Source of the DNA: Toxonevra muliebris | Lineage: Eukaryota > Arthropoda > Insecta > Diptera > Pallopteridae | Direction: 5' to 3' | DNA length: 64,000 nucleotides | Assembly: GCA_963691655.1 (NCBI GenBank) | Contig: OY829328.1 | Location: 70,932,400-70,996,399 of the forward strand | Shown: one piece after another, positions 1 to 55,672 of the stretch | Numbering within the stretch: position 1 is the stretch's first letter | Layout of the letters: the number at the start of each line of letters is the position of its first letter | Notes under the pieces: model-generated | Database searches by the model: none | What the model was told of the DNA's origin: nothing | What the model saw: only the letters and a program-made list of their open reading frames with translations | Made by a program: the position numbers and the translations under genes

Positions 1-2060
1 TTTGAACTTCTCTTGATTTGTTTTTTTGGTATGAATTTTAATTTGAATTCTTGTATGAAGGTTGGTCTGAATTTGATCCGGTTCTGGGTTCAAATTTTTA
101 ATTGATTTTTTGTTATAAGTTTTGAACTTTTTTTATATAAGTTTTGAACTGATTTCTTGTTTCGAACCTTGTTTTTTTTTTTTGAGCTAATTTTGCTTTA
201 ACTTTTAGCCTTTATGTGGTCCGAATTTCGATTTCATTTTGTAATTTTTTTATCTAAATTGTTAGCATAAATTTTGGTCTTTTTGTGAAGCCCATTGAAT
301 TCCTCTACTTATGTAGTTTTCCTAATAAGTTTTGGGCATTGGCAAAACCTAGTAGCAATAAGAAAATCACGAAACAGAAAAACAAGAAACAACCCCAATG
401 AAAATATCTTGAATAAAATCAATTTAAAATGATTTAATTCAAGATGCCAATTCAATCGACTTCATTCGGAAATTGAATGGTTAATTATCTAAATTTATTT
501 TGAATTGAATTTATATTATATTAATTTCAATAAATTTATTTGCCATTAAATTAATAATTTTTAATTAACATCGGTTTATTGAAATATAAAGTAAGTAGCT
601 GACAAAATTCTATATATCATCCTCCTTGATCCCAAATTGATTTTTAATGCATAAAAAGTTAATTAATCAAGTATTTCAGTATTATTTTTGTATGAATAAA
701 TTTAAATAACAATACCAAAAAAAAAAAAAAAAAAAAAAAACAATAAAATTCTTTCGTTTACGTGAGTTAAATGCAAACAGTTGTTGATACATTTCCGTGT
801 GCTTTCTTCCAGAATTGTGAACTCATCTTGTCATTGTCATTATTTACATTAACTACTTACTTACTCCCCATATATACAAACAAACAAAGAACAACGACGA
901 GTATTTGTTTTAAATGTCATGACTTCTTTATAATCATCTTAAATTTTTACCCATTTGATTTACGATTGTACTTTTTATGTGCCGCCCACTCATATTTTTT
1001 GTTTGTTTCGTTCTTCAATGTATTAAATCACTACAGCTGTATCCTCAGGCAAATACACTATACAACTGAAATGATTCCTTAAAGGAAACAAAATATTAAA
1101 CACAAAAAAAAAACAAAAAAAAAAGAAAGGAAAACAAAGGAAAGAAAAGAAAAAGTTATAAATATTTGTATAAATATGAGGACATAAAAATAGAGAAAAT
1201 AAAATCTAAATCAAAACAACACCACCGACACCAAACAGATAAGCCAAGTTAATGGATTTCATGGTTAACGGAAAAACAAAACAAAAACTGAATACACCAG
1301 TGAATCGTTATAAACCTTGGAAATAAAGTGCCACAATCACTCAACCAGAAAGTCCAGAGATATTCGTATTTATGTATCAAATTTATTTATATATAGATGC
1401 ATAAGCAACAACAAAACCATTAAATAGGTTGGCAGAGTAGGGGTGGATACCTAACAAATCTCCATTTTCGAAAAGCTTTTTATTTTTATTTTTTTTTTTT
1501 TTTTGATTAGTGATAAAAATTTTATTTCCTTTATAGAGATTCACTCTGCATATTCATACACTTTTCATGTCATTGAATTTTGGTTGTTTATTTTGTATTG
1601 TTTTAAGTAAATTTAATTGAAATAACGAAATGAAGTAAACCAAATGATACAATCGAACGAAACCGACTTAAAACAAGTGGCAGGGCTGTAAAATAAACTA
1701 AATCACAAACCAAACTTCGCAATGCGGAAAATCAAAACTTATAGGTGTTGGAGAAGTCCTTTCAAATTACAATGTGATATCTAAAATTTCTGTTTCTCTA
1801 AAGTTGTTGTTTGTAATTGGAAATACTTTTTTAATTTTGTTATTCAGAATTCTCTATAGTGTGATAAATTTCATCCCGATGTCTTGAATTCTAAAAAATT
1901 AAAAACAAAATTTATGAGTCAAAACTTCTTCACATAATTTCGACCTATTCCGACAGTTCGAATATTTTATCATCATTTCTTGCCCATCCTTCAAAATGTT
2001 CTATTTTTTCCTTGCAAATTTATTTCTGAATTGATTTTTTTTTTTAATTTTTCTCTTGCA
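1..2060. other. AT-rich sequence without a recognised gene
   Basis: No coding pattern was recognised. The first 250 bases are T-rich with loosely repeated words such as TTTGAACT and GGTCTGAATTT, the same texture as the degenerate array at 4.7-6.8 kb. Poly-A occurs at about 718-740 and poly-T near 1490-1504. The open frame at 771-1082 has no recognisable domain and looks like chance. If the sm gene extends leftwards this is intronic DNA, but nothing here proves it. Confidence 0.5.
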
Positions 2061-2089: not shown

Positions 2090-3060
2090 TTTGCGACAAA
2101 TTCATACCGAAAATCAGAGCACATTTCAGACTAAAATCAAAACCAAAAATTAGAATAAAAGTCAGACCTAAATGTCATGCCAAAACTCTGATCTAAAGTA
2201 AACCAAATTTAGACCAAAATTTAAACAGAAATTCAAACTAAAAATAAAAACTAAACTCAGGCCAAATTTCAGATCAAAATTCAGACCAGAATTTAAGCCA
2301 AATTCATACCGAAAATCAGAGCAAAATTCAGACCAAAATCCAAACTAAAAATTAGAATAAAAGTCAGCCCTAAATGCCAGGCCAAAACCCTGACCTAAAG
2401 TAAACCAAATTTAGACCAAAGTTTAAACAGAAATACAAACTAAAAATAAAACTTAAGCTCAGGCCAAATTTCTGATCAAAACTCAGACCAGAGTTTAAGC
2501 CAAATTCATACCGAAAATCAGAGCAAAATTCAGACCAAAATCCAAACTAAAAATTAGAATAAAAGTCAGACCTAAATGCCAGGCCAAAACTCTGACCTAA
2601 AGTAAACCAAATTTAGACCAAAGTTTAAACAGAAATTCAAACTAAAAAAAAAATTAAATTCAGGCCAAATTTCAAATCAAAATTCAGACCAGAATTTAAG
2701 CCAAATTCATACCGAAAATCAGAGCAAAATTCAGACCAAAATCCAAACTAAAAATTAGAATAAAAGTCAGCCGTAAATGCCAGGTCAAAATTCTGGCCTA
2801 AAGTAAACCAAATTTAGACCAAAATTTAAACAGAAATTTAAACTAAAAATAAAAATTAAATTCAGGCCAAATTTCATATCAAAATTCAGACCAGAATTTA
2901 AGCCAAATTCATACCGAAAATCAGAGCAGAATTCAGACCAAAATCCAAACTAAAAATTAGAATAAAAGTCAGCCCTAAATGCCAGGTCAAAATTCTGACC
3001 TAAAGTAAACCAAATTTAGCCCAAATTTAAACAGAAATTCAAACCGAAAGTTAAAATCAC
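2090..3060. repeat. 202-bp tandem repeat array, about 4.8 copies
   Basis: A landmark word, AATTCATACC followed by GAAAATCAG, recurs at 2099, 2301, 2503, 2704 and 2906, a period of 201-202 bp. The copies differ by scattered substitutions and single-base indels. Each unit is itself built from degenerate words of about 12 bases of the form AAATTCAGACCA, so the array has a nested structure. The strand shown is A-rich and G-poor. No open frame crosses the array. It is a minisatellite; function unknown. Confidence 0.9.
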
Positions 3061-4690: not shown

Positions 4691-6830
4691 TAATTTTTGT
4701 ATAAAATTTGGTTAGATTTGTTGCAGGAATTTACTTTTCTTATGTGATTTTTGTTTTGAAATAATTTAAAATTTTTGTCGGTCTGAATTTTAATGACTGA
4801 ATTTTGCCTCTTTCTTAGGCAAATTTTTTATCCCAATTTGGGGTATTTTTGGTCTGAATTTTTTCCGGTATTTGCTCTCCTTTTGATTTGATTTTTGTTT
4901 TGAAATTAGTCAATTTTTTTTTGGTCTAAATTTAGGTTTGAATTTTTGTCTAATTTTTTATTGCCTTTTGGTCTAATTTTTAGTCTGGTTTTGGTGTGAA
5001 ATTTAGGAACTGAATTTAGCTTCCTTGTTATCTGTTTTTTTTTTTTTCAGAATTATTTACAAATTTTTCACCCCAATTTAGGATATTTTTGGTCTGAATC
5101 TGCGATCGATTTTTTTCCGGAATTTTCTCTTTTTCTTATCTGATTTTTGTTTTGAATTTAGTCTAAATTTTTTTCGTCTAAATTTCGGTCTGAATTTTGG
5201 TTGCTTTTGGTCTAATTTGTAGTCTGATTTTGGTGTGAATTTTAGGAACTGAATTTGGCTTCCTTGCTATCTGTTTTTTTTTTTTCAGAATTGTTTACAA
5301 ATTTTTTTATCCCAATTTAGGGTATTTTTGGTCTGAATCTGCGAGAGATTTTTTCTCCGGAATTTTCTCTTCTTCTGATCTGATTTTTGTTTTGAATTTG
5401 GTTTAAATTTCGATCCGAATTTTTGTTGCCTTTTGATCTAATTTGTAGTCTGATTTTGGTGTGAATTTTAGGGACTGAGTTTTGCCTCCTGTTAACTGAT
5501 TTTTTTCTGAATTATTGACAAAATTTTTATCTCAATTTCGGGCATTTTTTGTGTTAATCTGCGATTGATTTTTTTTCCGGAATTAACTCTCCTTCTGATC
5601 TAATTTTTATTGGGAATTTAATCCAATTTTTTTGGGTCTAAATTTCGGTCAGAATTTTTTTGTTATTTTTTTTTTGCTCTTTGGTCTAATTTTTAGTCTG
5701 GTTTTGGTTTGAATTACAGAGACTCAATTTGGTTTCCTAGTTATCTAAATTTTTTCTGAATTATAGACAAATTTTTTATATCAATTTGAGGTATTTCTGG
5801 TCTGAATCTGCTATAGATTTTTCCGGAATTTGCTCTTTTTTTAAATTGATTTTCATTTTGAATTTAGTCCAAATTTTTTTGGTCTAAATTTCGGCCTGAA
5901 TTTTTATTTAATTTTTTGTTGCCTTTTGGTCTAATTTTTAGTTTGGTTTTGGTGTGAAATTTAGGTACTAAATTTGCCCTCCTTGTTTTCTGAATTTTTT
6001 TTTCCGAATTATGAAAAAATTTTTTATCTCAATTTGGTCTAAATCTGCCATAAATTTTTGTTCAGAATTTGCTCTCCTGACCTGAATTTCGTTTTGAGTT
6101 TAGTCTACATTTATTTGGTCTAAATTTTGTTCAATTTTTTTTTAGCTTTTGGTGTGAATGTCCTTGTCCTGAATTTGGTTTCCTTATTATCTGAATTTTT
6201 TTTCAGAATCATTGACAAATTTTTATCCCAATTTTGATCTGATTTTCTTCCAGAATTTGTTCTTCCCATTTTTGTCAAAATTTAGTTCCCTTTTGGTTTG
6301 ACTTTTTGTTCTGAAATTATTCTGAATTTGGGTTTGATTGTTGGTAACCTTTTGTTTTTAGTTCTGGCCTGAATTTCTTTTTAGTTTGAACTTTGTTCTG
6401 AATTTTGGTCTGAATTTTGATTTGAATGATGATTCTATTTTATCCTGAATTTGATCTGAATTACAATGTAGATTGTAATTTTTTATCTGAATTTGGTCTT
6501 CTTTTGCTGTGAATTTTCGTCCAAATTATGATCAGAATTTGGTTTGAATTTTAAACTGATCGCGGTTTAATTTTTGGTCTTAATATAGTATAAGTTTTAA
6601 TCTAAAATCTGAAGTACATTTTGAAAAAAAAAAAATTTGTCGTTTGAGTTTTGATCTGATTTTTGTCTGAATTTGGTCTTAATTTTGCTGTAAAGTTTGA
6701 TTGAATTTGAAAGTCCTCTTTGCTTTGAATTTTTGTCTGCATTTTGTTCTAATTTTTTATTTGAATTTTAGTTCAGTTATTTCTCTAGTTATTGGTCTGA
6801 TAATTTTCATATAATTTAGCAAAAAAAAAA
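4690..6830. repeat. T-rich degenerate repeat array, about 240-bp higher-order period
   Basis: The stretch is built from variants of TTTGGTCTGAATTT. A longer pattern is visible: the word GGTCTGAATCTGC or a variant recurs near 5090, 5330, 5550, 5800 and 6035, each time followed by a run of T, then CCGGAATT. The period is about 220-250 bp, with heavy divergence. The core word is the reverse complement of the AAATTCAGACC word in the 2.1-3.1 kb array, so the two arrays carry a similar motif in opposite orientation. No coding potential was seen. Confidence 0.75.
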
Positions 6831-13129: not shown

Positions 13130-14468
13130 TTATCTTATTCGATTGTTATTTTGAAGTATTAGCAAGTCTCTAGCATATTGATTTAGGTGTTGTTGCAGTT
13201 TGACTTTATGTTTTACAGCGTAGTTTTTTATTTCGTCTGCTATCGTTGGAATTTCCAGATCACGATGGATGTTGTCATTTTTTACATACCAAGGCGCTCC
13301 GGTCGCTTCACGAAGGATTTTATTTTGAACGACTTGGATTTAGTGGATGTTTGAAGGACTGGCTGTACCCCATAACTGGATGCCATAGGTCCAGATGGGC
13401 TTTATGATGCATTTGTAGATGAGTATTTTGTTTTCCAGGCTGACTTTAGAGTGTTTATTGATGAGCCATGATAAGCTGCACCGAGCCAGCTTTATCTGAG
13501 TTTTTTTTTTTGCATCGACGTGCTTTTTCCATGTTAATCGCCTGTCTAGGTGCAGGCCTAAGTATTTGACTTCGGTAACTTGTGGTACAGTAATACCATT
13601 TAGTTTAACTGGAGGGCATGTTCCTTTATTTAGTGTGAATGTTATGTGAGAGCTTTTTGTTTCATTTATTTTCATACGCTACTTTGCTAGCCAGTCATCA
13701 AGATTTTTGAGGTACGTAGAGAGACAGATTGAAGCGGAGATACGATTAGTGTGGGTACTAAGGATGGCTGTAACGTCAGCAAATGTTGATATTGTCACAT
13801 TACTGTTGGTTGGAAGATCAGATGTGTATATTAGGTTTAGAAGGGGACCTAGAACACTTCCTTGTGGAACACCAGCTTTAATTTCGTAGTCACGTGAAAT
13901 AAAACTTTTATATTTTAGTCTGAACTTTCTATTGGTTAGATATGACTCTAAAATTTTATGACAGCTTGCTGGCAGTAGTTTTTTGATTTTGAAAATAATG
14001 CCACACTTTGTCGAACGCCTGTGCGACGTCAAGGAAGATAGCTGAGCAATATTTTTTGCTTTCGTAGGCACTTGTTACCTCGGCAACAATTCTGCGGACC
14101 TGTTCGATTGTGCCGTGCTTTTCTCTGAAGCCGAATTGATGGTTTGGGATGACCTTTTTGATAACTAAGTGTGGCAAGAATTTCGCGAGCAGTAATTTTT
14201 CGAACAGCTTCGAAGTAATCGGCAATAAGCTAATCGGCCTATATGAAGTGATTTGAGTAGGATCCTTCCCTTGCTTATGTATCATGGTGATTTGGGATGT
14301 TTTCCAATTATTTGGGAAGTAACCGATTTTGAGGATGTTGTTGAAGAGTTGAGTAAAGACATCCGAATGGTTGGTAATCCTACTCTGGACAAAAGTAGTA
14401 TGGATTTGGCTTATAGCAAGCAATTCAAGAAACTTACGTAATAAATATTTTATAAATTTCCCACTCAC
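13130..14468 (-). pseudogene. Jockey-like non-LTR retrotransposon, 5'-truncated and broken RT
   Basis: Read right to left, it encodes the C-terminal two thirds of a reverse transcriptase. Early RT motifs are YRPISLLPITSKLFEK and NHQFGFREKHGT; the catalytic Asp of RT block A is in AIFLDVAQAFDKVW. Then come GVPQGSVLGPLLN and the YXDD-box equivalent FADVTAIL, where the second Asp is replaced by Val. The thumb follows (VKYLGLHLDRRLTWKKHV, IKPIWTYGIQLWG). After an in-frame TAA at 13340 the frame continues (ILREATGAPWYVKN) to a stop at 13130. At least one frameshift lies near 13990. The endonuclease half is absent, as expected for a 5'-truncated insertion. The catalytic change and stops make it dead. 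The jockey assignment is by sequence feel. Confidence 0.85.
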
Positions 14469-27703: not shown

Positions 27704-28997
27704 CAGGGTGACAATTGTAAAGTGACGCAAGTTTAATACTCTGCAGCAAGCTTTGCCATTTACCGTTACTTTAATTTAAAAAGCAAATTCATTCATCATT
27801 GGCTTTGCTTTTAATTTCATTTGAATTTTTGTTATTACATTTTGAAATTTCCATAAAAATGGACAAGGAAAATATTCGTCGTGAAATTATAAAATTTCAT
27901 TTGGCAAATTATAGTAGCCGTCAAATTGCAAAGGCTTTAAATTTGTCAAGTCGTACGGTAGACCGAGCTATTATTCGATATAATGAAACTGAGGTTTTTG
28001 GAGATAGAGACCGGGGAAAATTTTCAACAGTTGCTACTACTGGTTTAACAGAAAAAATTCATAAACGAATCAAGCGAAATCCAAGGCGCTCAATGAGAAA
28101 AATCGCTAAGGAAGTGGGAGTAAACCGTGAAACAGTGCGAATCATTGCAAAATCAAAGCTTAATCTTAAGCCGTACAAGCTCCGTAAAGCTCAAGATCTG
28201 ACACAAAAAAAGAAAGATTTGCGATTGCAAAGATGCAAGGCGTTGCTACGCTCCTCCGTGTTAAAAAATGTTGAAAATATCTTGTTTACAGATGAAAAAA
28301 TTTTCACGGTTGAACAACATTTCAATGCGCAAAATGACCGAATGTGGCTAACATCATCATCGCAACAAAATAGGACTGTTGGCCGAGTTCAAAAGCCAGC
28401 TTCCGTTATGGTATGGGCTGGAGTTTCCGCTAATGCCAGAACCCCTCTAATATTCGTTGAAGAGGGTGTTAAAATTGACCAGGTTGTTTATCGGAGCATT
28501 TTAAATGAACATGTTCTTCCCTGGGCCCAAGATACATTTGGAAATGAAAACTGGACTTTCCAGCAAGATTCTGCACCTTCCCACATGGCAAAATTAACGC
28601 AAACATGGATAAAAGACAATTTTACTGGATTCATAACATCTCAAGAATGGCCACCATACTCCCCAGACTTGAATCCAATGGACTACTCTATTTGGAGTAT
28701 TTTAGAGAGTAAGGCTTGTGCATCTCAACACCACAGACTGGAGTCGCTGACAAATTCATTAGAGAAAGCCTGGACTGAAATTGATCAGGAAGTCCTGCGG
28801 CGAACAGTCCTACGATTTCCGGATCGATTGAAGGCATGTGGAGGTTATATTGAATGAGGTGGTTATATTGAATGAGGTGGGGTTCAAATGAATGCTTATA
28901 TATTCAGCAATGTTAACACTTAATTGTACTTAATGGAAGTACGTCCTTTTAAAAATATCTGCTGAAATGTGTGCGTCACTTTACGATTGTCATCCTG
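27704..28997 (+). mobile_element. Complete maT-type (DD37D) mariner transposon, copy 1
   Basis: A 1294-bp cut-and-paste DNA transposon. The left end CAGGGTGACAATTGTAAAG and the inverse of the right end CAGGATGACAATCGTAAAG match in 24 of the first 26 positions and are flanked by TA at 27702-27703 and 28998-28999, the usual Tc1/mariner target. It encloses one uninterrupted transposase gene. A second complete copy lies at 46997-48284 in inverse orientation, which confirms both ends. Intact ends and an open frame suggest recent mobility. Confidence 0.95.
27859..28857 (+). CDS. Transposase, DD37D maT-like, 332 aa, intact
   Basis: Catalyses excision and integration of its own element at TA sites. 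The start chosen is the ATG at 27859 (MDKENIRREI); the open frame runs 20 codons further upstream but only from a non-ATG triplet. Residues 1-110 hold two helix-turn-helix-like segments (SSRQIAKALNLSSRTVDRAI and RSMRKIAKEVGVNRETVRII) separated by a basic linker. The catalytic domain has Asp145 in LFTDEK, Asp237 in QQDSAPSH and Asp275 in SPDLNPMDYSIW, with 37 residues between the last two, hence DD37D. Length is normal for the family. The last codons differ from copy 2: a small deletion plus an 18-bp tandem duplication at 28843-28878 give a C-terminus ACGGYIE in place of ACVQAKGDYIE. Whether this affects activity is unknown. Confidence 0.93.
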   Translation: MDKENIRREIIKFHLANYSSRQIAKALNLSSRTVDRAIIRYNETEVFGDRDRGKFSTVATTGLTEKIHKRIKRNPRRSMRKIAKEVGVNRETVRIIAKSKLNLKPYKLRKAQDLTQKKKDLRLQRCKALLRSSVLKNVENILFTDEKIFTVEQHFNAQNDRMWLTSSSQQNRTVGRVQKPASVMVWAGVSANARTPLIFVEEGVKIDQVVYRSILNEHVLPWAQDTFGNENWTFQQDSAPSHMAKLTQTWIKDNFTGFITSQEWPPYSPDLNPMDYSIWSILESKACASQHHRLESLTNSLEKAWTEIDQEVLRRTVLRFPDRLKACGGYIE

Positions 28998-30866: not shown

Positions 30867-32131
30867 TAAACTCGTATTTTTTTTTTTGTAATTTGGACAT
30901 TTATTGTGAAAAAGTGTTTATAAATTTATTCTTTAAAGTATTGTCCATCGTTAGCCACAACCTTTTCCCATCTTTCTGGTAGCATACTGATTCCGTGTCG
31001 AAAGAACTCCTCATCTTTTGAGGATATCCTCGATTCGACCCATTTTTTGAGTTCTTCGAAAGAACGGAAGTACTGTTCAGCCAGGCCATGTGTCATCGAT
31101 CGGAACAAGTGGTAATCAGAGGGAGCAATGTCTGGAGAATACGGCGGGTGGGGTAGCACTTCCCATTTCAGCGTTTCCAAGTATGTTTTTACGTGCCTTG
31201 CAACATGCGCCGAGCATTGTCGTGCTGAAGAATAACTTCGTCGTGCCTATTCTCATATTCTGGCCTCTTATCCTTTAATGCTCGGCTCAAACGCATCAAT
31301 TGTAGTCGGTAGCGGTCGCCAGTGATCGTTTCATTCGGTTTCAACAGCTCATAATACACGACACTTTTCATATCCCACCAAATACACAGCATGAGTTTGG
31401 ATCCATGAATGTTCGGCTTTGCCATTGATGTTGATGCATGTCCGGGCGGTCCCCATGATTTTTTACGCTTTGGGTTATCGTAACGTATCTAATTTGCATC
31501 GCCAGTCACAATACGATGCAGAAAACCCTTTCTTTTCTGTCGTTCAATCAGCAGTTCACATGTGAAAAATCGTCGTTCGACGTCTCTCGGCTTCAATTCA
31601 TACGGTACCCAATTTCCTTGCTTTTGAATCATTCCCAATGCTTTTAATCGTTTAGAAATGGTTGATTGATCAACTCCTAAAGATTCTGCAAGTTCTTGTT
31701 GCGTTTGACATGAATCTTCTTCGAGTAATGCCTTCAATTCTTCATCTTCGAACTTTTTCGGGCCGCCTGAACGTTCCCTGTCTTCAACATTAAAATCACC
31801 ACTTTTGAAACGGGCATACCACACCTGACACATTCTGACGTCTATAGCACAGTCAGGATAAGCTACAGTGAGTAAACGATGTGCTTCAGTTGCGTTTTTC
31901 TTTAAATGGAAGAAGCAAATTAAAACTTCCCGCAAATGTTGTTTTGTTGGCACAAAATTCGACATTTTCAGCTATAGTAAAACACTTTTGAAAAATTATG
32001 AAAATTATTTGACAGATCAATTCCTATAGTTTTTTTGGCACTCTTCAATATAGAATAGATATAGAATAGCTGCCAATGTTAAAAAAATGGCGCGTATGAT
32101 AGATATGAAGTTAGTCACAATTACGAGTTTA
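30867..32131 (-). mobile_element. DD34D mariner transposon, inactive copy
   Basis: About 1265 bp. The ends share TAAACTCGTA in inverted orientation and are flanked by TA (30865-30866 and 32132-32133). Beyond these ten bases the termini have diverged; the left has a T-run insertion. The element encloses a defective transposase gene on the minus strand. The size is typical of mariner. Confidence 0.8.
30926..31965 (-). pseudogene. Mariner transposase (DD34D) with stop and frameshift
   Basis: Starts with ATG at 31965. The N-terminal half binds the element ends: a first HTH near the start and a second in QQELAESLGVDQSTISKRLKALGM, then the WVPYEL and RDVERRF motifs of mariner. The first catalytic Asp is in VTGDAN, but the normal Glu-Lys-Trp after it is changed, and the Trp codon is a TAG stop at 31489. 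The second Asp is in LQHDNAR, followed at once by a one-base deletion near 31214. The frame then resumes at TLKWEVLPHPPYSPDIAPSD, which holds the third Asp. Only two lesions and few other changes suggest recent death. Protein length would be about 345 residues, normal for mariner. Confidence 0.9.
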
Positions 32132-32232: not shown

Positions 32233-33256
32233 GTGATGCGAAAGTGGTTATCATTTATTATTGCTGGAGTGCCGCAGGGCTCGGTCCTCTCCCCAACCCT
32301 TTTCCTTATCTTTATCAATGACTTTCTGTCATTGACTAGGAATTCCATTCACTCCTTTGCAGATGACAGCACCATTTGTCATTCATACACCTGCTCAAAA
32401 CGCCCTAACTCTTTGGAGATTGAGAGTAAACGGTATGCTATGAATGGCTCACTCAATAATGATCTCCAATCAATCTGTGAGTGGAGTCTCACGAACAGAG
32501 TTGAATTCAACGCGCGTAAGGCCCAATGTTGTTTGTTATCTCACAAACGAGTGGCCCAATCCTCTGTTAACCACCTGGTTATGGGTGGGGTGATTATTGC
32601 GGAGTCAGAAACTTTTGATGTCCTGGGCATGTCCATCCAATGTGACGTTCGTTGGAATAATCATATTTTTGATGTGTCGAAAGAAGCAGCCAAATGCCTC
32701 GGCTTTCTAAAGCGGTGTTAGAAATACTTCACTCTGTCTGATCTGATCAAAATTTATATTCCATTTTCGCACCTATGGGCAGGAGCTTCACGAACGCAAC
32801 TAGAGTTCCTGGATCGTATTCAACATCGGGCGATAAAGCTAATAGGAGACAGTAGGGTTTCCAGCTCTATTGACTCCTTGGAACACCGTAGAAACGTGGC
32901 TTGTGTGACTCTGTTCTACCGGTATTTTCATGGTAAATGCTCCGCGCTGAGATACGGAATTTGATTCCACCAGTTCATGTGTTCACCAGAACTACTCGTG
33001 GATATGGTACCCCAACGCACTACCAATTACAGAGATAGTTCTTTTCTCTGCCGTACCGCGCGTATCTGGAATAAGCTTCCTGCAACCGTTTTTCCTGACT
33101 TTTACGACATTTCCAAATTTAAAACAAACGTTCACAACTTTTTCTCCCTCTTTCCTCCTACCACTAATCTATCTTCATTCCTCAATCAACGCAATGCTTT
33201 GCATTCATAGGGGTACCCCCTGAATGTTGATTGCTTAAATAAAAAAAAAATAAAAA
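32233..33256 (+). pseudogene. 5'-truncated non-LTR retrotransposon with RT fragment and A-rich tail
   Basis: In the same direction as sm. The sequence begins inside the RT: AGVPQGSVLSPTLFLIFIND, the catalytic box SFADDSTICHS, then thumb motifs (ETFDVLGMSIQCDVRWNNHI, KEAAKCLGFLKRC). A stop at 32719 is followed by in-frame remains (FLDRIQHRAIKLIGD) and a further stop or shift near 32960. The C-terminus TARIWNKLPATVFPD at about 33050-33100 is typical of insect LINEs. The end is A-rich (AAATAAAAAAAAAATAAAAAAA, about 33236-33258), consistent with a retroposed 3' tail. It is a dead fragment. Clade uncertain. Confidence 0.85.
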
Positions 33257-34870: not shown

Positions 34871-35319
34871 AAAATACTTTTTGCCCGTCTCTATATACAT
34901 TGTTGTTGTGATGACTACATTTGTTCATTAAGCCTGTTTATATATAACTTCAAATAACGAAATTGACATGAACTTAAGTCATGACTTTGAAAATTAACCT
35001 CTAGATTTAATTTTCATAGTCTCCTAAAAAACTATCATGAACTGATCGAATGGGGACCGTTCAGAAAAAATGACACCTAGAATCATTTTCTCACAAACAC
35101 ACACACTCTCCCATGTACTAGACTTTCAAATAACGAACTGTTATGCAGACTAGCTACAATGGGAAAAAAACAACAACATAAGTGTATAGAACGGTAGTGG
35201 TAGTTTCTTTCAATATCTCTATTCAGTGAAGATATTTGGAATCAAATCCGTAATTCTGGGTTATGATTTCAAATATTAGTAGCTTATATAGGATATTGAA
35301 AGATTAAGAACTATCACTA

Positions 35320-35368
35320 AGATCACTGATGAAGAATTGTGGCGGATTCCGAAACGGCCGTCTGATTT
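35320..35368 (+). ncRNA. Hammerhead ribozyme motif, copy A (stem II mismatch)
   Basis: Stem I strands AGATCA (35320-35325) and TGATTT (35363-35368) pair over 6 bp. The core CTGATGA is at 35326-35332. Stem II pairs AGAAT (35333-35337) with ATTCC (35346-35350) around the 8-base loop TGTGGCGG. GAAA is at 35351-35354. Stem III is the palindrome ACGGCCGT (35354-35361): 2 bp with a tetraloop as a monomer, 8 bp as a dimer. Cleavage is predicted after C35362 of GTC. The base pair next to the core (10.1-11.1), normally G-C, is here A opposite C, so activity is probably reduced. The intact copy at 42964-43012 has G at this place. Confidence 0.82.
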
Positions 35369-35805
35369 GCCCGTCTCTATATACATTGTTGTTGTGATGA
35401 CTACATTTGTTCATTAAGCCTGTTTATATATAACTTCAAATAACGAAATTGACATGAACTTAAGTCATGACTTTGAAAATTAACCTCTAGATTTAATTTT
35501 CATAGTCTCCTAAAAAACTATCATGAACTGATCGAATGGGGACCGTTCAGAAAAAATGACACCTAGAATCATTTTCTCACAAACACACACACTCTCCCAT
35601 GTACTAGACTTTCAAATAACGAACTGTTATGCAGACTAGCTACAATGGGAAAAAAACAACAACATAAGTGTATAGAACGGTAGTGGTAGTTTCTTTCAAT
35701 ATCTCTATTCAGTGAAGATATTTGGAATCAAATCCGTAATTCTGGGTTATGATTTCAAATATTAGTAGCTTATATAGGATATTGAAAGATTAAGAACTAT
35801 CACTA

Positions 35806-35854
35806 AGATCACTGATGAAGAATTGTGGCGGATTCCGAAACGGCCGTCTGATTT
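35806..35854 (+). ncRNA. Hammerhead ribozyme motif, copy B (stem II mismatch)
   Basis: Identical to copy A and exactly 486 bases downstream; cleavage is predicted after C35848. It carries the same A-C mismatch at the base of stem II, so the change existed before the two units were duplicated or retrotransposed. It is in the sense orientation of sm, about 200 bases before the exon at 36061, so it would be transcribed within the sm pre-mRNA. Confidence 0.82.
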
Positions 35855-36060
35855 GCCCGTCTCTATATACATTGTTGTTGTGATGACTACATTTGTTCAT
35901 TAAGCCTGTTTATATATAACTTCAAATAACGAAATTGACATGAACTTAAGTCATGACTTTGAAAATTAACCTCTAGATTTAATTTTCATAGTCTCCTAAA
36001 AAACTATCAATACTTTTTATTTTAATATTAAATATTACTTTTTGTTTCTTTTTTTTATAG

Positions 36061-36336
36061 ATTAAATTTTTGAAAACCAAAGAAGGCACCGCTATGGTAC
36101 AAATGGGTGATTCCGTTGCTGTTGAACGTTGTGTACAACATTTGAATAACATTTCCATTGGTACAATTGGAAAGATACAAATTGCATTCTCCAAACAAAA
36201 TTTTCTCTCCGAAGTTATAAATCCATTTTTACTTCCCGATCATACACCCAGTTTTAAAGAGTATACAGGCTCTAAAAATAATCGTTTTCTATCACCAGCA
36301 CAGGCTAGCAAAAATCGCATACAACCACCGAGCAAG
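36061..36336 (+). CDS. sm: hnRNP L homologue (smooth), exon with the RRM3 C-terminal half and linker
   Basis: An internal exon of 92 codons, both borders in phase 0. It is preceded by a pyrimidine tract and TAG (36058-36060) and followed by the donor GTTTGT. It encodes IKFLKTKEGTAMVQMGDS, which contains an RNP1-like strand (GTAMVQM), then the last helix and strand of RRM3 (VERCVQHLNN, KIQIAFSKQ). The inter-RRM linker follows, with EYTGSKNNRFLSPAQASKNR and then IQPPSK. The vertebrate hnRNP L pattern of KF(M/L)K, AMVEM and RNNRF..P.QA.KNRI matches closely, so the family call is firm. hnRNP L proteins bind CA-rich RNA in the nucleus and control splicing. The 80-base intron to the next exon is short. 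The ribozyme repeat ends just 42 bases before this acceptor. Confidence 0.93.
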
Positions 36337-40028: not shown

Positions 40029-40236
40029 GTACTTGGAATCAAATCCGTAATTCTGGGTTATGATTTCAAATATTAGTAGCTTATATAGGATATTGAAAGA
40101 TTAAGAACTATCACTAAGATCACTGATGAGGAATCGTTGCGAATTCCGTAACGGCCAACTGATTTGCCCGTCACTCTATATACACTGTTGTTGTGATGAC
40201 TACATATGCACGTTCTGTAAGCTTGTTTTACATTAC
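40029..40236 (+). mobile_element. Diverged fragment of the hammerhead repeat inside a LINE
   Basis: From ACTTGGAATCAAATCCG onward this matches the 486-bp unit. It passes through the ribozyme junction and then diverges around 40205-40236. It interrupts the I-group LINE between its RT end and its RNase H part, so it inserted after that LINE, or was trapped with it. The ribozyme motif at 40117-40165 is damaged: GAAA reads GTAA and the GT that closes stem III reads AA. Stem I (AGATCA with TGATTT), CTGATGA and stem II (GGAAT with ATTCC) are preserved. Confidence 0.75.
40117..40165 (+). ncRNA. Degenerate hammerhead ribozyme motif (core mutated)
   Basis: Stem I AGATCA (40117-40122) and TGATTT (40160-40165), core CTGATGA (40123-40129), stem II GGAAT and ATTCC (40130-40134 and 40143-40147). 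The invariant GAAA is GTAA, and the cleavage triplet reads AAC in place of GTC. It should be inactive. The correct G-C pair at the base of stem II shows that this was the ancestral state, later lost in the tandem copies at 35.3-35.9 kb. Confidence 0.7.
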
Positions 40237-40870
40237 TTAAAATGAGCACTTCGTGTGCTTTAAAAGCCTCGATAATGCCTATAGCCATAAGACGTTGGAC
40301 TTTTACCAATTTCTTCAAAAAAGATTTGGTTTCGAGAGAAGTCCACCAAACTAAAATTCCATACAGTAGTATGAGTGTCACTATTGAAATGAAAATCCAG
40401 TAAGTGATTTTGGGTTTCAGACTCCATAGATTTGGCATTCAGTTTATATTAGCTCTTAATTTAGTGTAGTCTAAGGTGGCACTGTCTTTTTCACCTCTTG
40501 AAATACAATGCGTCATCAAAAGTTTTGGAGTTTTGTTTATGACTGTCTTGACGGTTCCATTCGAGTACGATTTTTGTATCTAAAACCATTTCTTCAGTTT
40601 GTTTTTCATTCGCGTACCTCCACAATGGTGTTTTACTAATTTTATTACATATACCAGAATACTACAAAATTATTCTGACACCTGAATACCTAAAGCGTGT
40701 ACCCGATAGAGTTTAATAGTAGACAATGTTGCACTGCCGTATAAAAGAATGGATTTGATGCACTCATTGAATACTAGTATATCTATTAGGTTGCTAGTTT
40801 TTTCTATATGGAATAAAAACTAACAAGTATTGATCTTGCTTTACCAGTTAGTTTTCTATATCTTCTACTA

Positions 40871-41200: not shown

Positions 41201-42814
41201 CAGATCCGAAAAAAATAAACATTTTTTATGAGATTTTTTGAGGTTATGTCAGAACCCTGACATTTTATACTGAACACGGAGATCATTCTATTTTGAAATG
41301 ATTTCAGACAGTTTTATAATACTGTAGAAGCAAGGCCGGGGGGGGGGGGGGGCGGATTTGTATGCAAAATATTTATTTATTTCTCATAAAATTCTTTGAA
41401 TTATTTTAAACATTCCAGAAAATTCTTTTCCTTTGTCTCTTTAATTATTACATTTCCAAATCAGATTAAATTATTTATAATTATCTATAAGTTTCTTTGG
41501 GGTTTGCATTGCTGACGAATTTATTGTTTACAATTTACATGAATAACTGTAACCAACAACAACAACAACAAAAGAGCGAATTAAAATGAAAAACAATAAA
41601 ATACTTGCACACACATAATCAACACATACATACGCATATGCATTTAATATGTAAGCATAGCATACTTTAGTGAGTATGTAACTCACTCAAGTGCTCATGT
41701 GTTGATAATCCATCCATCCGCCATCGTCTGTCTGTCTGTCTTTTTCTTTGTTTTAACTTTGTTATTGTAGTTATGTAATGGTGCAACTGTGTCGTTGTCC
41801 TTGTTAAATTTGTCATGTATGTATATGCATATTTATAGGTAGATATGTGTGTATGAGTGTTTGTGTGTGTGTGTGTAAGAGTGCATTACCTTTTGCAGAA
41901 GAAAAACAAAATGGGAAAATCTGAAAAACACAAAAAGAGAAAAATAAAAAAGAAGACCGACGAAGAACGTGATGACGAGCAAACGAACATATATTTGAGT
42001 TGAAAACATGCATTAAAACATCATGCTACACAAGTTTGCGCAGAGTTGTTGTTAAAAGTTACATGCATACTATGGATGCACACATTAGCAGATTCTAGAA
42101 GGGATGGGGGTTTTGGGGATAAACCCCTTTTTGTACTAATGGAAATCTCATGCACTTTAATCGTTGGCCATAAATCAAAAAACAAAGTTTTTATGTGACC
42201 AAAAAATTAAAGATCCCCCTTCTAAAGTATCTGAATCCGCTAGTGGATACATTCATACATCTTATTTCATGCTCGCATTTATGTATGTAATATTGAATGC
42301 ATACAAAAATATACTCATTTTTCCTATATCCCTTTGATCCCTTTGTATAAAGTTTGCTACATACTAATATATAAGTTTAATTAGTTGATTTTTAAAATGA
42401 AAGGATAATAAAGATGAACTTTGTCTCTCTGGGAAACTATTAATAATTTAATGAAAATCATTTTAATTGTTAAATGTTTCTAAGCGAGTATATATTTATG
42501 AAGATCTCATTCATTTTGGTGGGAGAAAAAAATTAAAACCCCTTCCTTCGCTTAAGAAATGTTTAGATCCGCTAGTAACTGCGACCATTCCTGATTTTTT
42601 GTTCAGCCTTTGCTTTTGACACAAATTTAAATGAAGACTACTGATTAATCCCAGAAATCGGTCAAGTTTTATCTTGGAAGGTCTCAGAAGTCCATTTCCG
42701 CTGTAAAGCTTTTGCAGCTTTTTGATTTGATCGCATATAGCGACGGAACAAAATTGGTAGGAGCGCTCTGATTTCGATGAAATTTCGTAAGGTTGTCAGT
42801 CAGATTCATTTCCG
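41201..42814. other. Intronic sequence with simple repeats and a G14 run
   Basis: A run of 14 G residues lies at 41339-41352. There is (CAA)n near 41551-41571, a (TG)n run near 41860-41874, and CTGT repeats near 41728-41743. Two stretches near 42080-42230 and 42490-42560 share words (AAAACCCCTTCC, AGATCCGCTAGT) and may be fragments of one repeat. No gene was recognised. Confidence 0.4.
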
Positions 42815-43134
42815 TTTTTTAGGAGACTATGAAAATTAAATCTAGAGGTTAATTTTCAAAGTCATGACTTAAGTTCATGTCAATTTCGTTATTTGAAGTT
42901 ATATATAAACAGGCTTAATGAACAAATGTAGTCATCACAACAACAATGTATATAGAGACGGGCAAATCAGACGGCCGTTTCGGAATCCGCCACAATTCCT
43001 CATCAGTGATCTTAGTGATAGTTCTTAATCTTTCAATATCCTATATAAGCTACTAATATTTGAAATCATAACCCAGAATTACAGATTTGATTCCAAATAT
43101 CTTCACTGAATAGAGATATTGAAAGAAACTACCA
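42815..43134 (-). mobile_element. Hammerhead-repeat copy, inverted, intact ribozyme
   Basis: Inverse of the 486-bp repeat family: 320 bases, with 165 on the 5' side and 155 on the 3' side of the predicted cleavage site. Its 3' end is CCTAAAAAAC, matching the 3' end of the tandem insertion at 36.0 kb to within a few bases. Sequence similarity to the tandem copies is very high. The ribozyme core is complete. No clear target duplication was found; the 5' end appears truncated within the unit. It lies antisense within the sm intron, so sm transcription would not make the active strand. Confidence 0.85.
42964..43012 (-). ncRNA. Hammerhead ribozyme motif, intact core
   Basis: On the minus strand: stem I AGATCA (43012-43007) with TGATTT (42969-42964), CTGATGA, stem II GGAAT with ATTCC and 8-base loop TGTGGCGG, GAAA, palindromic stem III ACGGCCGT, and the cleavage triplet GTC with scission predicted between 42970 and 42969. 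All invariant core positions are present, including the G-C pair at the base of stem II. The very short stem III is the style of minimal hammerheads linked to Penelope-like elements, which may need dimers to cut efficiently. Confidence 0.87.
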
Positions 43135-46996: not shown

Positions 46997-48284
46997 CAGA
47001 GTGACAATCGTAAAGTGACGCACACATTTCAGCAGTTATTTTCAAAAGGACGTACTTCCATTAAGTACAATTAAGTGTTAACATTGCTGAATATATAAGC
47101 ATTCATTTGAACCCCACCTCATTCAATATAATCTCCTTTAGCCTGCACACATGCCTTCAATCGATCCGGAAATCGTAGGACTGTTCGCCGCAGGACTTCC
47201 TGATCAATTTCAGTCCAGGCTTTCTCTAATGAATTTGTCAGCGACTCCAGACTGTGTTGTTGAGATGCACAAGCCTTACTCTCTAAAATACTCCAAATAG
47301 AGTAGTCCATTGGATTCAAGTCAGGGGAGTATGGTGGCCATTCTTGAGATATTATGAATCCAGAAAAATTGTCTTTTATCCATGTTTGCGTTAATTTTGC
47401 CATGTGGGAAGGTGCAGAATCTTGCTGGAAAGTCCAGTTTTCATTTCCAAATGTATCTTGGGCCCAGGGAAGAACATGTTCATTTAAAATGCTCCGATAA
47501 ACAAGCTGGTCAATTTTAACACCCTCTTCAACGAATATTAGAGGGGTTCTGGCATTAGCGGAAACTCCAGCCCATTCCATAACGGAAGCTGGCTTTTGAA
47601 CTCGGCCAACAGTTCTATTTTGTTGCGATGATGATGTTAGCCACATTCGGTCATTTTGCGCATTGAAATGTTGTTCAACCGTGAAAATTTTTTCATCTGT
47701 AAACAAGATATTTTCAACATTTTTTAACACGGAGGAGCGTAGCAACGCCTTGCATCTTTGCAGTCGCAAATCTTTCTTTTTTTGTGTCAGATTTTGAGCT
47801 TTTCGGAGATTGTACTGCTTAAGATTAAGCTTTGATTTTGCAATGATTCGCACTGTTTCACGGTTTACTCCCAATTCCTTAGCGATTTTTCTCATTGAGC
47901 GCCTTGGATTTCGCTTGATTCGTTTACGAATTTTTTCTGTTAAACCAGTATTGGCAACTGTTGTAAATTTTCCCCTGTCTCTATCTCCAAAACCCCCAGT
48001 TTCATTATATCGAATAATAGCTCGGTCTACCGTACGACTTGACAAATTTAAAGCCTTTGCAATTTGACGGCTACTATAATTTGCCAAATGAAATTTCATA
48101 ATTTCACGACGAATATTTTCCTTGTCCATTTTTATGGAAATTTCAAAATGTAATAACAAAAATTCAAATAAAATCAAAAGCAAAGCCTATGAAGAATGAA
48201 TTTGATTTTCAAATTAAAGTAACGGTAAATGGCAAAGCTTGCTGCAGAGTATTAAACTTGCGTCACTTTACAATTGTCACCCTG
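46997..48284 (-). mobile_element. Complete maT-type (DD37D) mariner transposon, copy 2
   Basis: 1288 bp, inverse to the copy at 27704-28997. The ends CAGAGTGACAATCGTAAAG and, inverted, CAGGGTGACAATTGTAAAG are flanked by TA (46995-46996 and 48285-48286). It contains one open transposase frame. Being inside the sm intron and antisense to it, it would not be expressed from the sm promoter. Confidence 0.95.
47119..48129 (-). CDS. Transposase, DD37D maT-like, 336 aa, open frame
   Basis: Start at the ATG giving MDKENIRREIMKFHLANYSS; the frame is open a further 18 codons upstream without an ATG start. It has the same domain order as copy 1: two HTH-like segments (residues about 20-45 and 80-105), then Asp145 (LFTDEK), Asp237 (QQDSAPSH) and Asp275 (SPDLNPMD). 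Compared with copy 1 there are about 17 substitutions, one of which (Val to Glu in PASVMEWAG) falls in a normally hydrophobic strand of the RNase H-like fold and could impair it. The C-terminus ends KACVQAKGDYIE and lacks the local rearrangement seen in copy 1, so it is probably the ancestral form. Confidence 0.92.
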   Translation of the reverse strand: MDKENIRREIMKFHLANYSSRQIAKALNLSSRTVDRAIIRYNETGGFGDRDRGKFTTVANTGLTEKIRKRIKRNPRRSMRKIAKELGVNRETVRIIAKSKLNLKQYNLRKAQNLTQKKKDLRLQRCKALLRSSVLKNVENILFTDEKIFTVEQHFNAQNDRMWLTSSSQQNRTVGRVQKPASVMEWAGVSANARTPLIFVEEGVKIDQLVYRSILNEHVLPWAQDTFGNENWTFQQDSAPSHMAKLTQTWIKDNFSGFIISQEWPPYSPDLNPMDYSIWSILESKACASQQHSLESLTNSLEKAWTEIDQEVLRRTVLRFPDRLKACVQAKGDYIE

Positions 48285-54076: not shown

Positions 54077-55672
54077 TTTCTTTCTCCTCTCTCTCTCTCC
54101 TCTCTCTTTTCTCATTCTCACCTCGCTTTTCTCTCAGAGAGAGGAGAGAAGAAGACTAGAGTGGGAAGAGAGAGAACGAAAGGGAAGATGGAGAAGGAAG
54201 AGAGAGAAGAAAGGGAAAAGAGGGAAGAGAGCAGATAGGGAAGAGAGAGAAGAGAGCCAGGAGAGGGAAAAGAGAGAAGAGAGTCAGGAGAGGGAAGAGA
54301 GAGATGAAAGGGAAGAGAGAGATGAGAGGGAAGAGAGAGATGAGAGGGAAGAGAGAGAAGAGAGGGAAGAGAGGGAAGAGAGGGAAGAGAGTCAGCAGAG
54401 GAAAGAGAGAGAAGAGAGGGAAGAGAGAGAAGAGAGGAAAGAGAGAGAAGAGAGGAAAGAGAGAGAAGAGAGGAAAGAGAGTCAGGAGAGGAAAGAGAGA
54501 GAAGAGAGAGAAGAGAGAGAAGAGAGGGAAGAGAGAGAAGAGAGGGAAGAGAGAGAAGAGAAAGAAGAGAGGGAAGAGAGAGAAGAGAGGAAAGAGAGAG
54601 AAGAGAGGAAAGAGAGTCAGGAGAGGAAAGAGAGAGAAGAGAGAGAAGAGAGAGAAGAGAGAGAAGAGAGGAAAGAGAGAGAAGAGAGGAAAGAGAGAGA
54701 AGAGAGGAAAGAGAGAGAAGAGAGGAAAGAGAGAGAAGAGAGGAAAGAGAGAGAAGAGAGGAAAGAGAGAGAAGAGAGGAAAGAGAGAGAAGAGAGGAAA
54801 AAGAGAGAAGAGAGGAAAGAGAGATAAGAGAGGAAAGAGAGAGAAGAGAGTCAGGAGAGGGAAGAGAGAGAAGAGAAAGAAGAAAGGGAAGAGAGAGAAG
54901 AGAGGGAAGAGAGAGAAGAGAGAGAAGAGAGTCAGGAGAGGAAAGAGAGAGAAGAGAGTCAGGAGTGGAAGGAGAGGGAAGAGAGAGAAGAGAGAGAAGA
55001 GAGAGAAGAGAGGAAAGAGAAAGAAGAGAGGAAAGAGAGAGAAGAGAGGAAAGAGAGAGAAGAGAGGAAAGAGAGAGAAGAGAGTCAGGAGAATAAAGAG
55101 AGAGAAGATAGGGAAGAGAGAGAAGAGAAAGAAGAGAGGGAAGAGAGAGAAGAGAGGGAAGAGAGAGAAGAGAAAGAAGAGAGGGAAGAGAGAGAAGAGA
55201 GTCAGGAGAGGAAAGAGAGAGAAGAGAGAGAAGAGAGGAAAGAGAGGGAAGAGAGGGAAGAGAGAGAAGAGAGAGAAGAGAGAGAAGAGAGAGAAGAGAA
55301 AGAAGAGAGGGAAGAGAGAGAAGAGAGTCAGGAGAGGAAAGAGAGAGAAGAGAGTCAGGAGTAGAAAGAGAGGAAAGAGCGGAAAGAGAGAGAAGAGAGG
55401 AAAAAGAGAGAAGAGAGGAAAGAGAGAAAAGAGAGGAAAGAGAGAAAAGAGAGGAAAGAGAGAGAAGAGAGTCAGGAGAGGGAAGAGACAGGAGATAGAA
55501 AGAGAGCTCTCTCTTCTTTCTCTCTCTCTCCTCTCTATCCCTCTCTTTCTTTCTCTTCTCTCTTCCCTCTCTTCCCTCTCTTCCCTCTCTTCTCTCTCTC
55601 TGCTCTGTCTCTCTTTCCTCTCTCTCTCTCTCCTCTGTCTCTCTCCTCTGTCTCTCTCCTCTCTCTCCCTAT
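54077..55672. repeat. GA/CT array of 1.6 kb with 18-bp units, pyrimidine arms at both ends
   Basis: A nearly pure purine strand from about 54136 to 55506 is built of 18-base units (GGAAAGAGAGAGAAGAGA and variants), interrupted at intervals by GTCAG. Short pyrimidine tracts (54077-54135 and 55507-55672, mostly CT) flank it, so each end can fold back on the purine part. The 474-codon open frame at 54304-55728 is a by-product: purine-only DNA offers few stop codons, and its product would be GKREKR repeats. Long mirror-symmetric purine/pyrimidine tracts can form triplex (H-) DNA. Confidence 0.92.

What the first reader, a model, noticed from the sequence alone, without database searches (positions are those of the whole stretch)
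34873..36018. A hammerhead-ribozyme tandem repeat (retrozyme-like) in a fly genome, with exact target duplications
Seen: two 486-bp units plus 154 bases, apparently identical, framed by AATACTTTTT on both sides, with a full hammerhead layout at each unit junction (stem I 6 bp, CTGATGA, stem II 5 bp, GAAA, palindromic stem III, GTC). Known: hammerheads occur in Penelope-like elements and in small non-autonomous retrozymes. Inference: this is a non-autonomous, ribozyme-carrying retroelement that inserted as an RNA multimer. No RT is attached, so the mobilising partner is unknown.
Basis: partly seen in the sequence, partly recalled or inferred. Interest (0 to 1): 0.9.

Follow-up and report, generated by a model that had tools for sequence, protein, structure and literature searches.

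The report
Fly retrozyme moved by Penelope machinery
A small parasitic DNA repeat in a fly genome carries a self-cutting RNA motif, and its copies start at two places near that motif, as do copies of the genome's own Penelope retrotransposons, which points to the enzyme that spreads it.

Summary
In detail: two identical 486-bp units plus 154 bases, exact 10-bp target duplication, type I hammerhead layout at each junction. Rfam's Hammerhead_1 aligns exactly there, below its curated cut-off (20.5 vs 34 bits). The window's copy is a mutant (G>A at the base of stem II, both units); 62 of 64 sampled units have the intact pair, and the genome holds 1,484 perfect 43-nt ribozyme cores. It is a young, dispersed, non-autonomous retrozyme. 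New here is evidence on its mobilising partner. Of 43 copies, 42 have their 3' end at one of two sites, 73-86 or 155-165 nt after the predicted ribozyme cut; 9 of 9 resolved inverted 5' pieces also start there. The genome's Penelope-like family A does the same at +80..88 and +114..124 (36 of 40 matches). This is the internal-initiation signature shown in vitro for a lizard Penelope element (PMC11167929). None of 21 arrays mixes haplotypes, so each probably came from one monomer, most simply a circular RNA. Mobilisation by Penelope protein is strongly supported but not shown; cleavage and circularity are inferred.

The parts
34873..34882 (.). left target-site duplication AATACTTTTT
   Evidence: exact
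34883..36008 (+). retrozyme insertion, 2.32 units
34883..35368 (+). unit 1 (486 bp); unit position 1 = 34883
35369..35854 (+). unit 2, identical to unit 1
35855..36008 (+). partial third unit (154 bp), ending at RT start site 2 = 3' end of the insertion
36009..36018 (.). right target-site duplication AATACTTTTT
35320..35368 (+). type I hammerhead ribozyme, unit 1; predicted cut 35362|35363
   Evidence: Hammerhead_1 20.5 bits, E 0.0039 (below gathering 34)
35806..35854 (+). type I hammerhead ribozyme, unit 2; predicted cut 35848|35849
   Evidence: identical to the first
35333..35333 (+). private G>A at stem II position 10.1 (also 35819); predicted hammerhead energy -1.6 against -5.3 kcal/mol for the majority form
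34949..34962 (+). RT start site 1 (unit 67-80; 73-86 nt after the predicted cut); also 35435-35448 and 35921-35934
   Evidence: 3' ends of 17 of 43 copies
35031..35041 (+). RT start site 2 (unit 149-159; 155-165 nt after the predicted cut); also 35517-35527; this insertion's own 3' end is unit 154
   Evidence: 3' ends of 25 of 43 copies
42814..43134 (-). second copy, 5'-truncated, 321 bp, 3' end at site 2 (unit 150), hammerhead 42964-43012 with intact stem II
40030..40243 (+). old relic copy (89%), ribozyme core broken, match ends at site 1 (unit 73)
36061..36198 (+). part of a host exon of an hnRNP L-like gene; the retrozyme lies sense in the preceding intron, 42 nt from right duplication to the end of the intron
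   Evidence: (PDB 3to8_A, E 2.4e-6)

Best explanation
This is one insertion of a young, high-copy, non-autonomous retrozyme family. Its transcript is cut at the hammerheads into 486-nt monomers, which are ligated into circles (inferred). The reverse transcriptase/endonuclease of a resident Penelope-like element (PLE) recognises the region from the hammerhead to about 165 nt downstream (inferred). It nicks A/T-rich DNA and starts cDNA synthesis inside the RNA at one of two fixed sites, then copies round the circle for from less than one unit up to about seven units. It can also start from the opposite DNA strand at the same sites, giving head-to-head inverted 5' pieces, and repair often leaves target duplications of about 10 bp. 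Shown from sequence: the anatomy, the two start sites, inverted pieces starting at the same sites, the matching geometry in the genome's PLEs, and the single-haplotype arrays. Inferred: RNA cleavage, circularity, and PLE protein acting in trans.
For: 3' ends: 42 of 43 copies fall in 25 nt of the 486-nt unit (17 at site 1, 25 at site 2, 1 outlier at unit 41; windows drawn after seeing the ends). The 41 arrays' 3' flanks share no sequence in register (2 weak repeat matches), so they are separate insertions. Inverted 5' pieces: 9 of 9 resolved start at unit 72-81 or 149-162; a tenth (L025) meets an N gap. PLE family A: of 40 scored matches, 14 end +80..88 and 22 end +114..124 after the predicted hammerhead cut, 3 run on, 1 ends at +100; 5 of 5 inverted pieces start there (coordinates only). 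PLE B: 3' ends +74, +111, +113 (the last may reach +122) and outer ends of two inverted copies at +77 and +113; PLE C: one end, +135. A purified lizard PLE starts internally at two adjacent sites, cuts and extends both strands, and its hammerhead cut is 26 nt and its main start 111-118 nt into the ORF, so 85-92 nt apart (PMC11167929). Exact 43-mer counts form a saw-tooth: 597 after site 2, 1,013 mid-unit, 1,484 at the ribozyme, 1,016 between the sites. Monomer bottleneck: 0 of 21 arrays mix 7 shared polymorphisms (permutation mean 17.8, minimum 12 of 20,000); variants private among these 21 arrays occur in all full units of the window array, L016, L027 and L028.
Against: No RNA data, so cleavage, circles and expression are untested. 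Overall sequence similarity between the retrozyme's start region and the PLEs' is weak (shuffle fractions 0.04 for B and 0.075 for A); a shared AAGCCYG word was chosen after looking, and family C lacks it. Site 2 lies about 30-55 nt further from the cut than in PLEs A and B and 20-30 nt further than in C. The hairpin predicted round site 1 in PLE copies is not firmly predicted in the retrozyme. No end at site 1 was seen for family C. Repeats at both junctions are under 9 nt in 14 of 36 arrays. The hammerhead is not the minimum-energy fold of the isolated 50-mer, and Rfam misses its gathering score. The 41 arrays are the best-scoring ones of 1,907 candidates, so they lean to long copies. In vitro the lizard PLE does not need ribozyme activity.
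Confidence: 0.8

Rival explanations
1. PLE mobilises the element, but the template is a long uncut linear multimer transcribed from an existing array, not a circle.
For: In vitro, ribozyme mutants of the lizard PLE do not affect insertion and unprocessed RNA is described as the dominant substrate (PMC11167929). Homogeneous arrays could inherit homogeneity. The window's ribozyme is weakened.
Against: A new mutation in one unit of a parental array would appear in one unit of the daughter; in the window array, L016, L027 and L028 the private variants are in every full unit, which needs a monomer stage. Later gene conversion would also do this, but unconverted single-unit variants exist in L013, L014, L020, L023 and L025.
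Confidence: 0.2
2. A LINE mobilises it by ordinary target-primed reverse transcription; inverted 5' ends are twin priming.
For: Target duplications, variable 5' ends and 5' inversions also occur with LINEs (general knowledge). RVT_1 fragments of unclassified type lie in the window. 6 of 41 arrays have a run of >=6 A within 6 nt of the 3' end.
Against: No consistent poly(A) tail: 35 of 41 lack such a run, and in L015, L028 and L051 the A run is repeated at the 5' junction, hence target. The A runs inside the unit at 183-188 and 282-288 hold 0 of the 43 ends. Twin-priming inversions should start at varied points (general knowledge), but 9 of 9 start at the same two sites as the 3' ends, as in PLE A.
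Confidence: 0.07
3. The unit is the pseudo-LTR of a PLE, that is, a derivative that lost the open reading frame, and the arrays are pLTR repeats rather than an independent element.
For: Same order of parts: hammerhead, then start sites. In rotifers pLTR sequences were judged sufficient for integration in trans (PMC3846280 passages). A 2024 review suggests retrozymes arose by reduction of PLEs (PMC11722881 passages).
Against: In the 21 arrays read in full the units follow each other directly. Three PLE proteins of this genome have no match in L009-L028 or the window, and the unit has no match at E<=1e-3 in the PLE loci L030-L050. This would change the origin, not the mechanism.
Confidence: 0.12
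4. Ordinary satellite or chance repeat.
For: Tandem units.
Against: Short arrays at dispersed sites, repeats at both junctions in 22 of 36 arrays, two fixed 3' ends, 1,484 perfect ribozyme cores.
Confidence: 0.01

Closest known systems
Metazoan non-LTR retrozymes (Cervera and de la Pena 2020, PMC7229834)
   Same: type I hammerhead at each unit junction, low-GC tandem units from dimers upward, target duplications longer than 4 bp, no long reading frame, co-existence with PLEs
   Different: unit 486 bp, above their 150-450 bp; start sites and the PLE match are not in the parts I read (1-4 of 6), where PLEs are named as a strong candidate helper
Penelope-like elements (Penelope/Poseidon clade)
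   Same: hammerhead followed by two internal RT start sites, optional 'tail', tandem and inverted structure, target duplications near 10 bp (PMC11167929, PMC3846280)
   Different: no RT/endonuclease reading frame; canonical hammerhead instead of the minimal PLE type; site 2 further downstream
Plant LTR retrozymes (PMC4918200, seen in search listing only; details from PMC7229834 and PMC7761336)
   Same: non-autonomous, hammerhead, circular RNA intermediate reported
   Different: type III hammerheads in LTRs, 4-bp duplications, Gypsy as likely helper

Membership tests
metazoan non-LTR retrozyme | type I hammerhead at unit junctions | tested here: met
   layout and sub-threshold Rfam hit; activity untested
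metazoan non-LTR retrozyme | short tandem units, dimer to multimer, in dispersed copies | tested here: met
   unit 486 bp is slightly above the reported 150-450 bp, a descriptive range
metazoan non-LTR retrozyme | GC below 45% | tested here: met
   33.5%
metazoan non-LTR retrozyme | target duplications longer than 4 bp | tested here: met
   10 bp here; >=9 nt in 22 of 36 arrays, shorter in 14
metazoan non-LTR retrozyme | non-autonomous, no long reading frame | tested here: met
   longest stop-to-stop 52 aa
metazoan non-LTR retrozyme | no LTR, primer binding site or polypurine tract | not tested
   no LTR seen by eye; the other two were not searched
metazoan non-LTR retrozyme | self-cleaving RNA and circular RNA in vivo | not testable with these tools
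   no RNA data or bench; the monomer bottleneck is indirect
Penelope-like element | RT plus GIY-YIG reading frame | tested here: not met
   none in the unit or window; it works like a PLE but is not one
Penelope-like element | two internal RT start sites downstream of the hammerhead, used on both strands | tested here: met
   against 65, 110; read from insertion ends, not from the enzyme
LINE-mobilised SINE | 3' tail or 3' end shared with a partner LINE | tested here: inconclusive
   no consistent A tail (6 of 41 with a run of >=6 A); partner LINE 3' ends not searched

The most novel reading that the evidence does not exclude
Metazoan retrozymes in general are PLE parasites: a circular RNA carrying a PLE-type start module (hammerhead plus two-site initiation region) hijacks the PLE protein, which reverse-transcribes it by rolling circle from both target strands. 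The conserved hammerhead of PLEs themselves would then be the circle-maker and positional anchor of the same pathway.
Probability: 0.45. Interest if true: 0.88.

Novelty: new member of a known kind. Interest (0 to 1): 0.7.

Why it matters
Which enzyme spreads animal retrozymes is open: PMC7229834, PMC7761336 and PMC11722881 name PLEs (or LINEs) as candidates from shared hammerheads, tandem copies and co-existence. Here a purely genomic test separates them: start sites, their distance from the ribozyme, and inverted pieces starting at the same sites. The test can be run on any genome with retrozymes. It also gives a ready substrate (486-nt RNA) and candidate enzymes (PLE families with long open frames) for a bench test, and a possible role for the unexplained hammerheads of PLEs.

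Tried and rejected
Rejected: satellite, chance repeat and snoRNA readings (SNORD24, E 0.0083, 30.9 bits against a cut-off of 41, overlaps the hammerhead's own CTGATGA; I take it as chance, an inference). A common start-region hairpin was explored: GACCAA/TTGGTC encloses site 1 with pair probabilities 0.71-0.94 in a family A copy, 0.47-0.49 in a second A copy and 0.82-0.99 in B; GGCCU/AGGCC 0.91-0.99 in C; no confident counterpart in the retrozyme, so shared structure is not claimed. The AAGCCYG word at +54 (retrozyme), +58 (A) and +53 (B) is post hoc. The circle's fold is strong (z -7) but the reverse complement folds nearly as well (-119.8 against -128.6 kcal/mol), so it is weak evidence. Rfam finds nothing at E<=10 for the family A PLE hammerhead; that label rests on the motif and the literature. 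A family C end at +75 that I first noted is an artefact of the edge of the fetched locus and is withdrawn. Not obtained because the genome search stayed busy: genome-wide ends for PLE B and C, the Rfam hammerhead count of the genome, and the 43-mer count before site 1.

Full report
OBSERVATION. The insertion is real and exact: 34883-36008, two identical 486-bp units plus 154 bases, framed by AATACTTTTT. Each unit junction has a type I hammerhead layout. Rfam's Hammerhead_1 aligns to exactly 35320-35368 at 20.5 bits, E 0.0039, in an 81-base search, below its gathering score of 34; the window scan at gathering gave nothing and a 1.5-kb search gave no hammerhead row. The form found in 62 of 64 full units has G, not A, at stem II position 10.1; on L009 it scores 23.8 bits, E 0.00032. 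The window array carries a private G>A there in both units, which changes the predicted hammerhead energy from -5.3 to -1.6 kcal/mol. In neither form is the hammerhead the minimum-energy fold of the isolated 50-mer.

COPIES. The genome (491 Mb, 96 contigs, unnamed) holds many near-identical copies (90 matches, 40 scored of 1,907 candidates). The 43-nt ribozyme core (without the 5' strand of stem I) occurs 1,484 times without a mismatch; reversed-pattern control 0. I examined every array of the list, 41 with the window's own (L009-L028, L051-L070), and two single copies in the window. Of 1,939 unit pairs from different arrays, 1,881 differ by 0-4 changes, so the family is young. Their 3' flanks share no sequence in register; two pairs share a diverged repeat (75 and 82%). 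Older relics are present at 40030-40243 and in L022, L023 and L028.

ENDS. One search measured 3' ends by exact extension. It misread L023 and L028, where a nearby relic was taken; for these I use the BLAST ends (149 and 75), and for the window relic that (73). Result: 17 of 43 at unit 67-80, 25 of 43 at unit 149-159, 1 outlier (L066, unit 41, with its own junction repeat). The windows were drawn after seeing the ends. Relative to the predicted cut (after unit 480) these are +73..86 and +155..165. The 27 forward 5' ends used show no single direction (Rayleigh p 0.32) and 3 lie in the site windows, 1.6 expected; by eye there are small clusters (5 at unit 21-30, 3 at 464-465, 4 at 143-158), not tested. 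One, the window's own, starts 4-7 nt after the cut. Ten arrays have an inverted 5' piece; 9 of 9 with a readable outer border start at unit 72, 73, 75, 80, 81, 149, 153, 159 or 162. The tenth (L025) meets an N gap. The remaining 4 of 41 arrays (L018, L021, L055, L056) have no readable 5' border. Repeats of at least 9 nt in target-duplication position occur in 22 of 36 arrays, and are shorter or absent in 14, against 2.9% of 1,260 mismatched pairings; 5 of the 41 arrays were dropped there because of gaps or a contig end. Lengths may include a base or more of chance likeness to the element. Exact 43-mer counts give an independent whole-genome view: 597 (unit 166-208), 1,013 (320-362), 1,484 (444-486), 1,016 (82-124). 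Counts rise towards the ribozyme, as 5' truncation predicts, then fall beyond it. The count just before site 1, which would place the first fall exactly, could not be obtained.

ARRAYS ARE SINGLE-HAPLOTYPE. Sixty-four full units of 21 arrays (the window and L009-L028) fall into 13 haplotypes. For the 7 polymorphisms shared by at least two units, 0 of 21 arrays are mixed; 20,000 permutations gave a mean of 17.8 and a minimum of 12. Variants private among these arrays fill all full units of the window array (2), L016 (2), L027 (2) and L028 (6). Partial units were not scored. Each array therefore seems to have passed through a monomer. A circular RNA copied several times round is the simplest such stage. 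The circle's predicted fold is strong (-128.6 kcal/mol, z -7 against 100 shuffles), but so is its reverse complement's (-119.8). Circularity is inferred.

PARTNER. A GIY-YIG search found two places above the cut-off. One, L030, has RT and GIY-YIG frames of Penelope type, split over frames (type recognised from recall). Its RT segment found 148 matches, among them three groups with long open frames that I call A, B and C. All three have RVT_1; GIY-YIG is seen by Pfam in A only, below its cut-off (20.8 against 22.6 bits). Family A's closest proteins are mostly unnamed proteins, those with a species from flies such as Eurosta, Rhagoletis, Haematobia and Calliphora (best 120 of 400 listed). The name Penelope-like thus rests on architecture, the hammerhead motif and the tandem and inverted structure, not on a database name. 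For family A, a query running from before the hammerhead past both sites gave 40 scored matches of 315 candidates: 14 end +80..88 after the predicted cut, 22 end +114..124, 3 run on, 1 ends at +100; five adjacent inverted pieces start at +80, +82, +114, +118 and +119 (read from coordinates). Family B: 3' ends at +74, +111 and +113 (the last may reach +122), outer ends of two inverted copies at +77 and +113. Family C: one end, at +135. A +75 end for C in my notes and is a locus-edge artefact.

LITERATURE. PMC11167929 (parts 1-2 of 4 read) reports that a purified lizard PLE starts reverse transcription inside its RNA at two adjacent sites, cuts and extends both strands without an apparent difference in start site, and that the main start is 111-118 nt and the hammerhead cut 26 nt into the ORF, hence 85-92 nt apart (my subtraction). 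It also reports that ribozyme mutants still insert. PMC3846280 (passages) reports 8-10 bp duplications, a 31-bp tail, inverted pLTRs and trans mobilisation of a host gene in rotifer PLEs. PMC7229834 (parts 1-4 of 6) defines metazoan retrozymes, mentions insects, and calls PLEs a strong candidate helper. PMC7761336 and PMC11722881 (passages) argue likewise. PMC8490949 (passages) covers schistosome hammerhead repeats. Searches joining retrozymes or hammerheads with Penelope, insects or internal initiation (one search listed 15 of 23) showed no title or abstract start that reports start sites for retrozymes. That covers open-licence PMC papers only.

MECHANISM. Shown from sequence: two fixed 3' start sites at PLE-like distances from a hammerhead, inverted pieces starting at the same sites, variable 5' stops, junction repeats, monomer origin of each array. 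Inferred: self-cleavage, ligation to a circle, use of PLE protein in trans. An A-rich primer site alone does not explain the starts: the A runs at unit 183-188 and 282-288 hold none of the 43 ends, and 6 of 41 arrays have a run of 6 or more A within 6 nt of the end. Differences from the PLEs are real: site 2 is further away, and overall sequence likeness is weak (shuffle fractions 0.04-0.075).

CONTEXT. The insertion lies sense in the intron before an exon whose translation matches hnRNP L, 42 nt from its right duplication to the end of the intron. Whether its ribozymes act in that pre-mRNA is unknown.

VERDICT. A new member of the metazoan retrozymes. Its genome copies give evidence, the first I found within the searches named, that ties such an element to PLE start-site chemistry and not only to co-occurrence.

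Noticed in passing
L089:1-101 (G000:C2:29437590-29437690), beside an N gap: The flank reads aaagcagtgggtatcaacgcagagtac, which resembles a template-switch cDNA adaptor (recalled): probably an assembly artefact between two head-to-head retrozyme arrays.
   Followed up: no
window 27799-28857 (+) and 47119-48183 (-): Two long open frames (352 and 354 aa) with HTH and DDE_3 matches, Tc1/mariner-like transposases (DDE_3 of the second is below its cut-off).
   Followed up: partly
window 31489-31965 (-), 32233-32721 (+), 13679-14468 (-): Mos1-type HTH fragment and RVT_1 fragments of other mobile elements.
   Followed up: no
window 2097-3049, 4965-6035, 54136-55506: Tandem arrays with periods of about 202, 239 and 18 bp, not matched by the retrozyme unit.
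   Followed up: no
window 36009-36061: The retrozyme sits sense in an intron of an hnRNP L-like gene, 42 nt upstream of the intron end; effects on splicing are an open question.
   Followed up: partly
L047, L048 (PLE family B): Two copies with an 866-aa PLE frame share 99.97% identity over 2,936 bp at different loci with different inverted 5' pieces: a very recent PLE burst.
   Followed up: partly
L023 about 6927 (reverse strand): A divergent hammerhead-like relic with AAGATCACTGATGAGGAACCGTGGCG: possibly another, older retrozyme lineage.
   Followed up: no
retrozyme 5' ends, unit 21-30 and 464-465: 5 and 3 of the 27 forward 5' ends lie in these narrow stretches (list); possible preferred stop points, not tested.
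   Followed up: no
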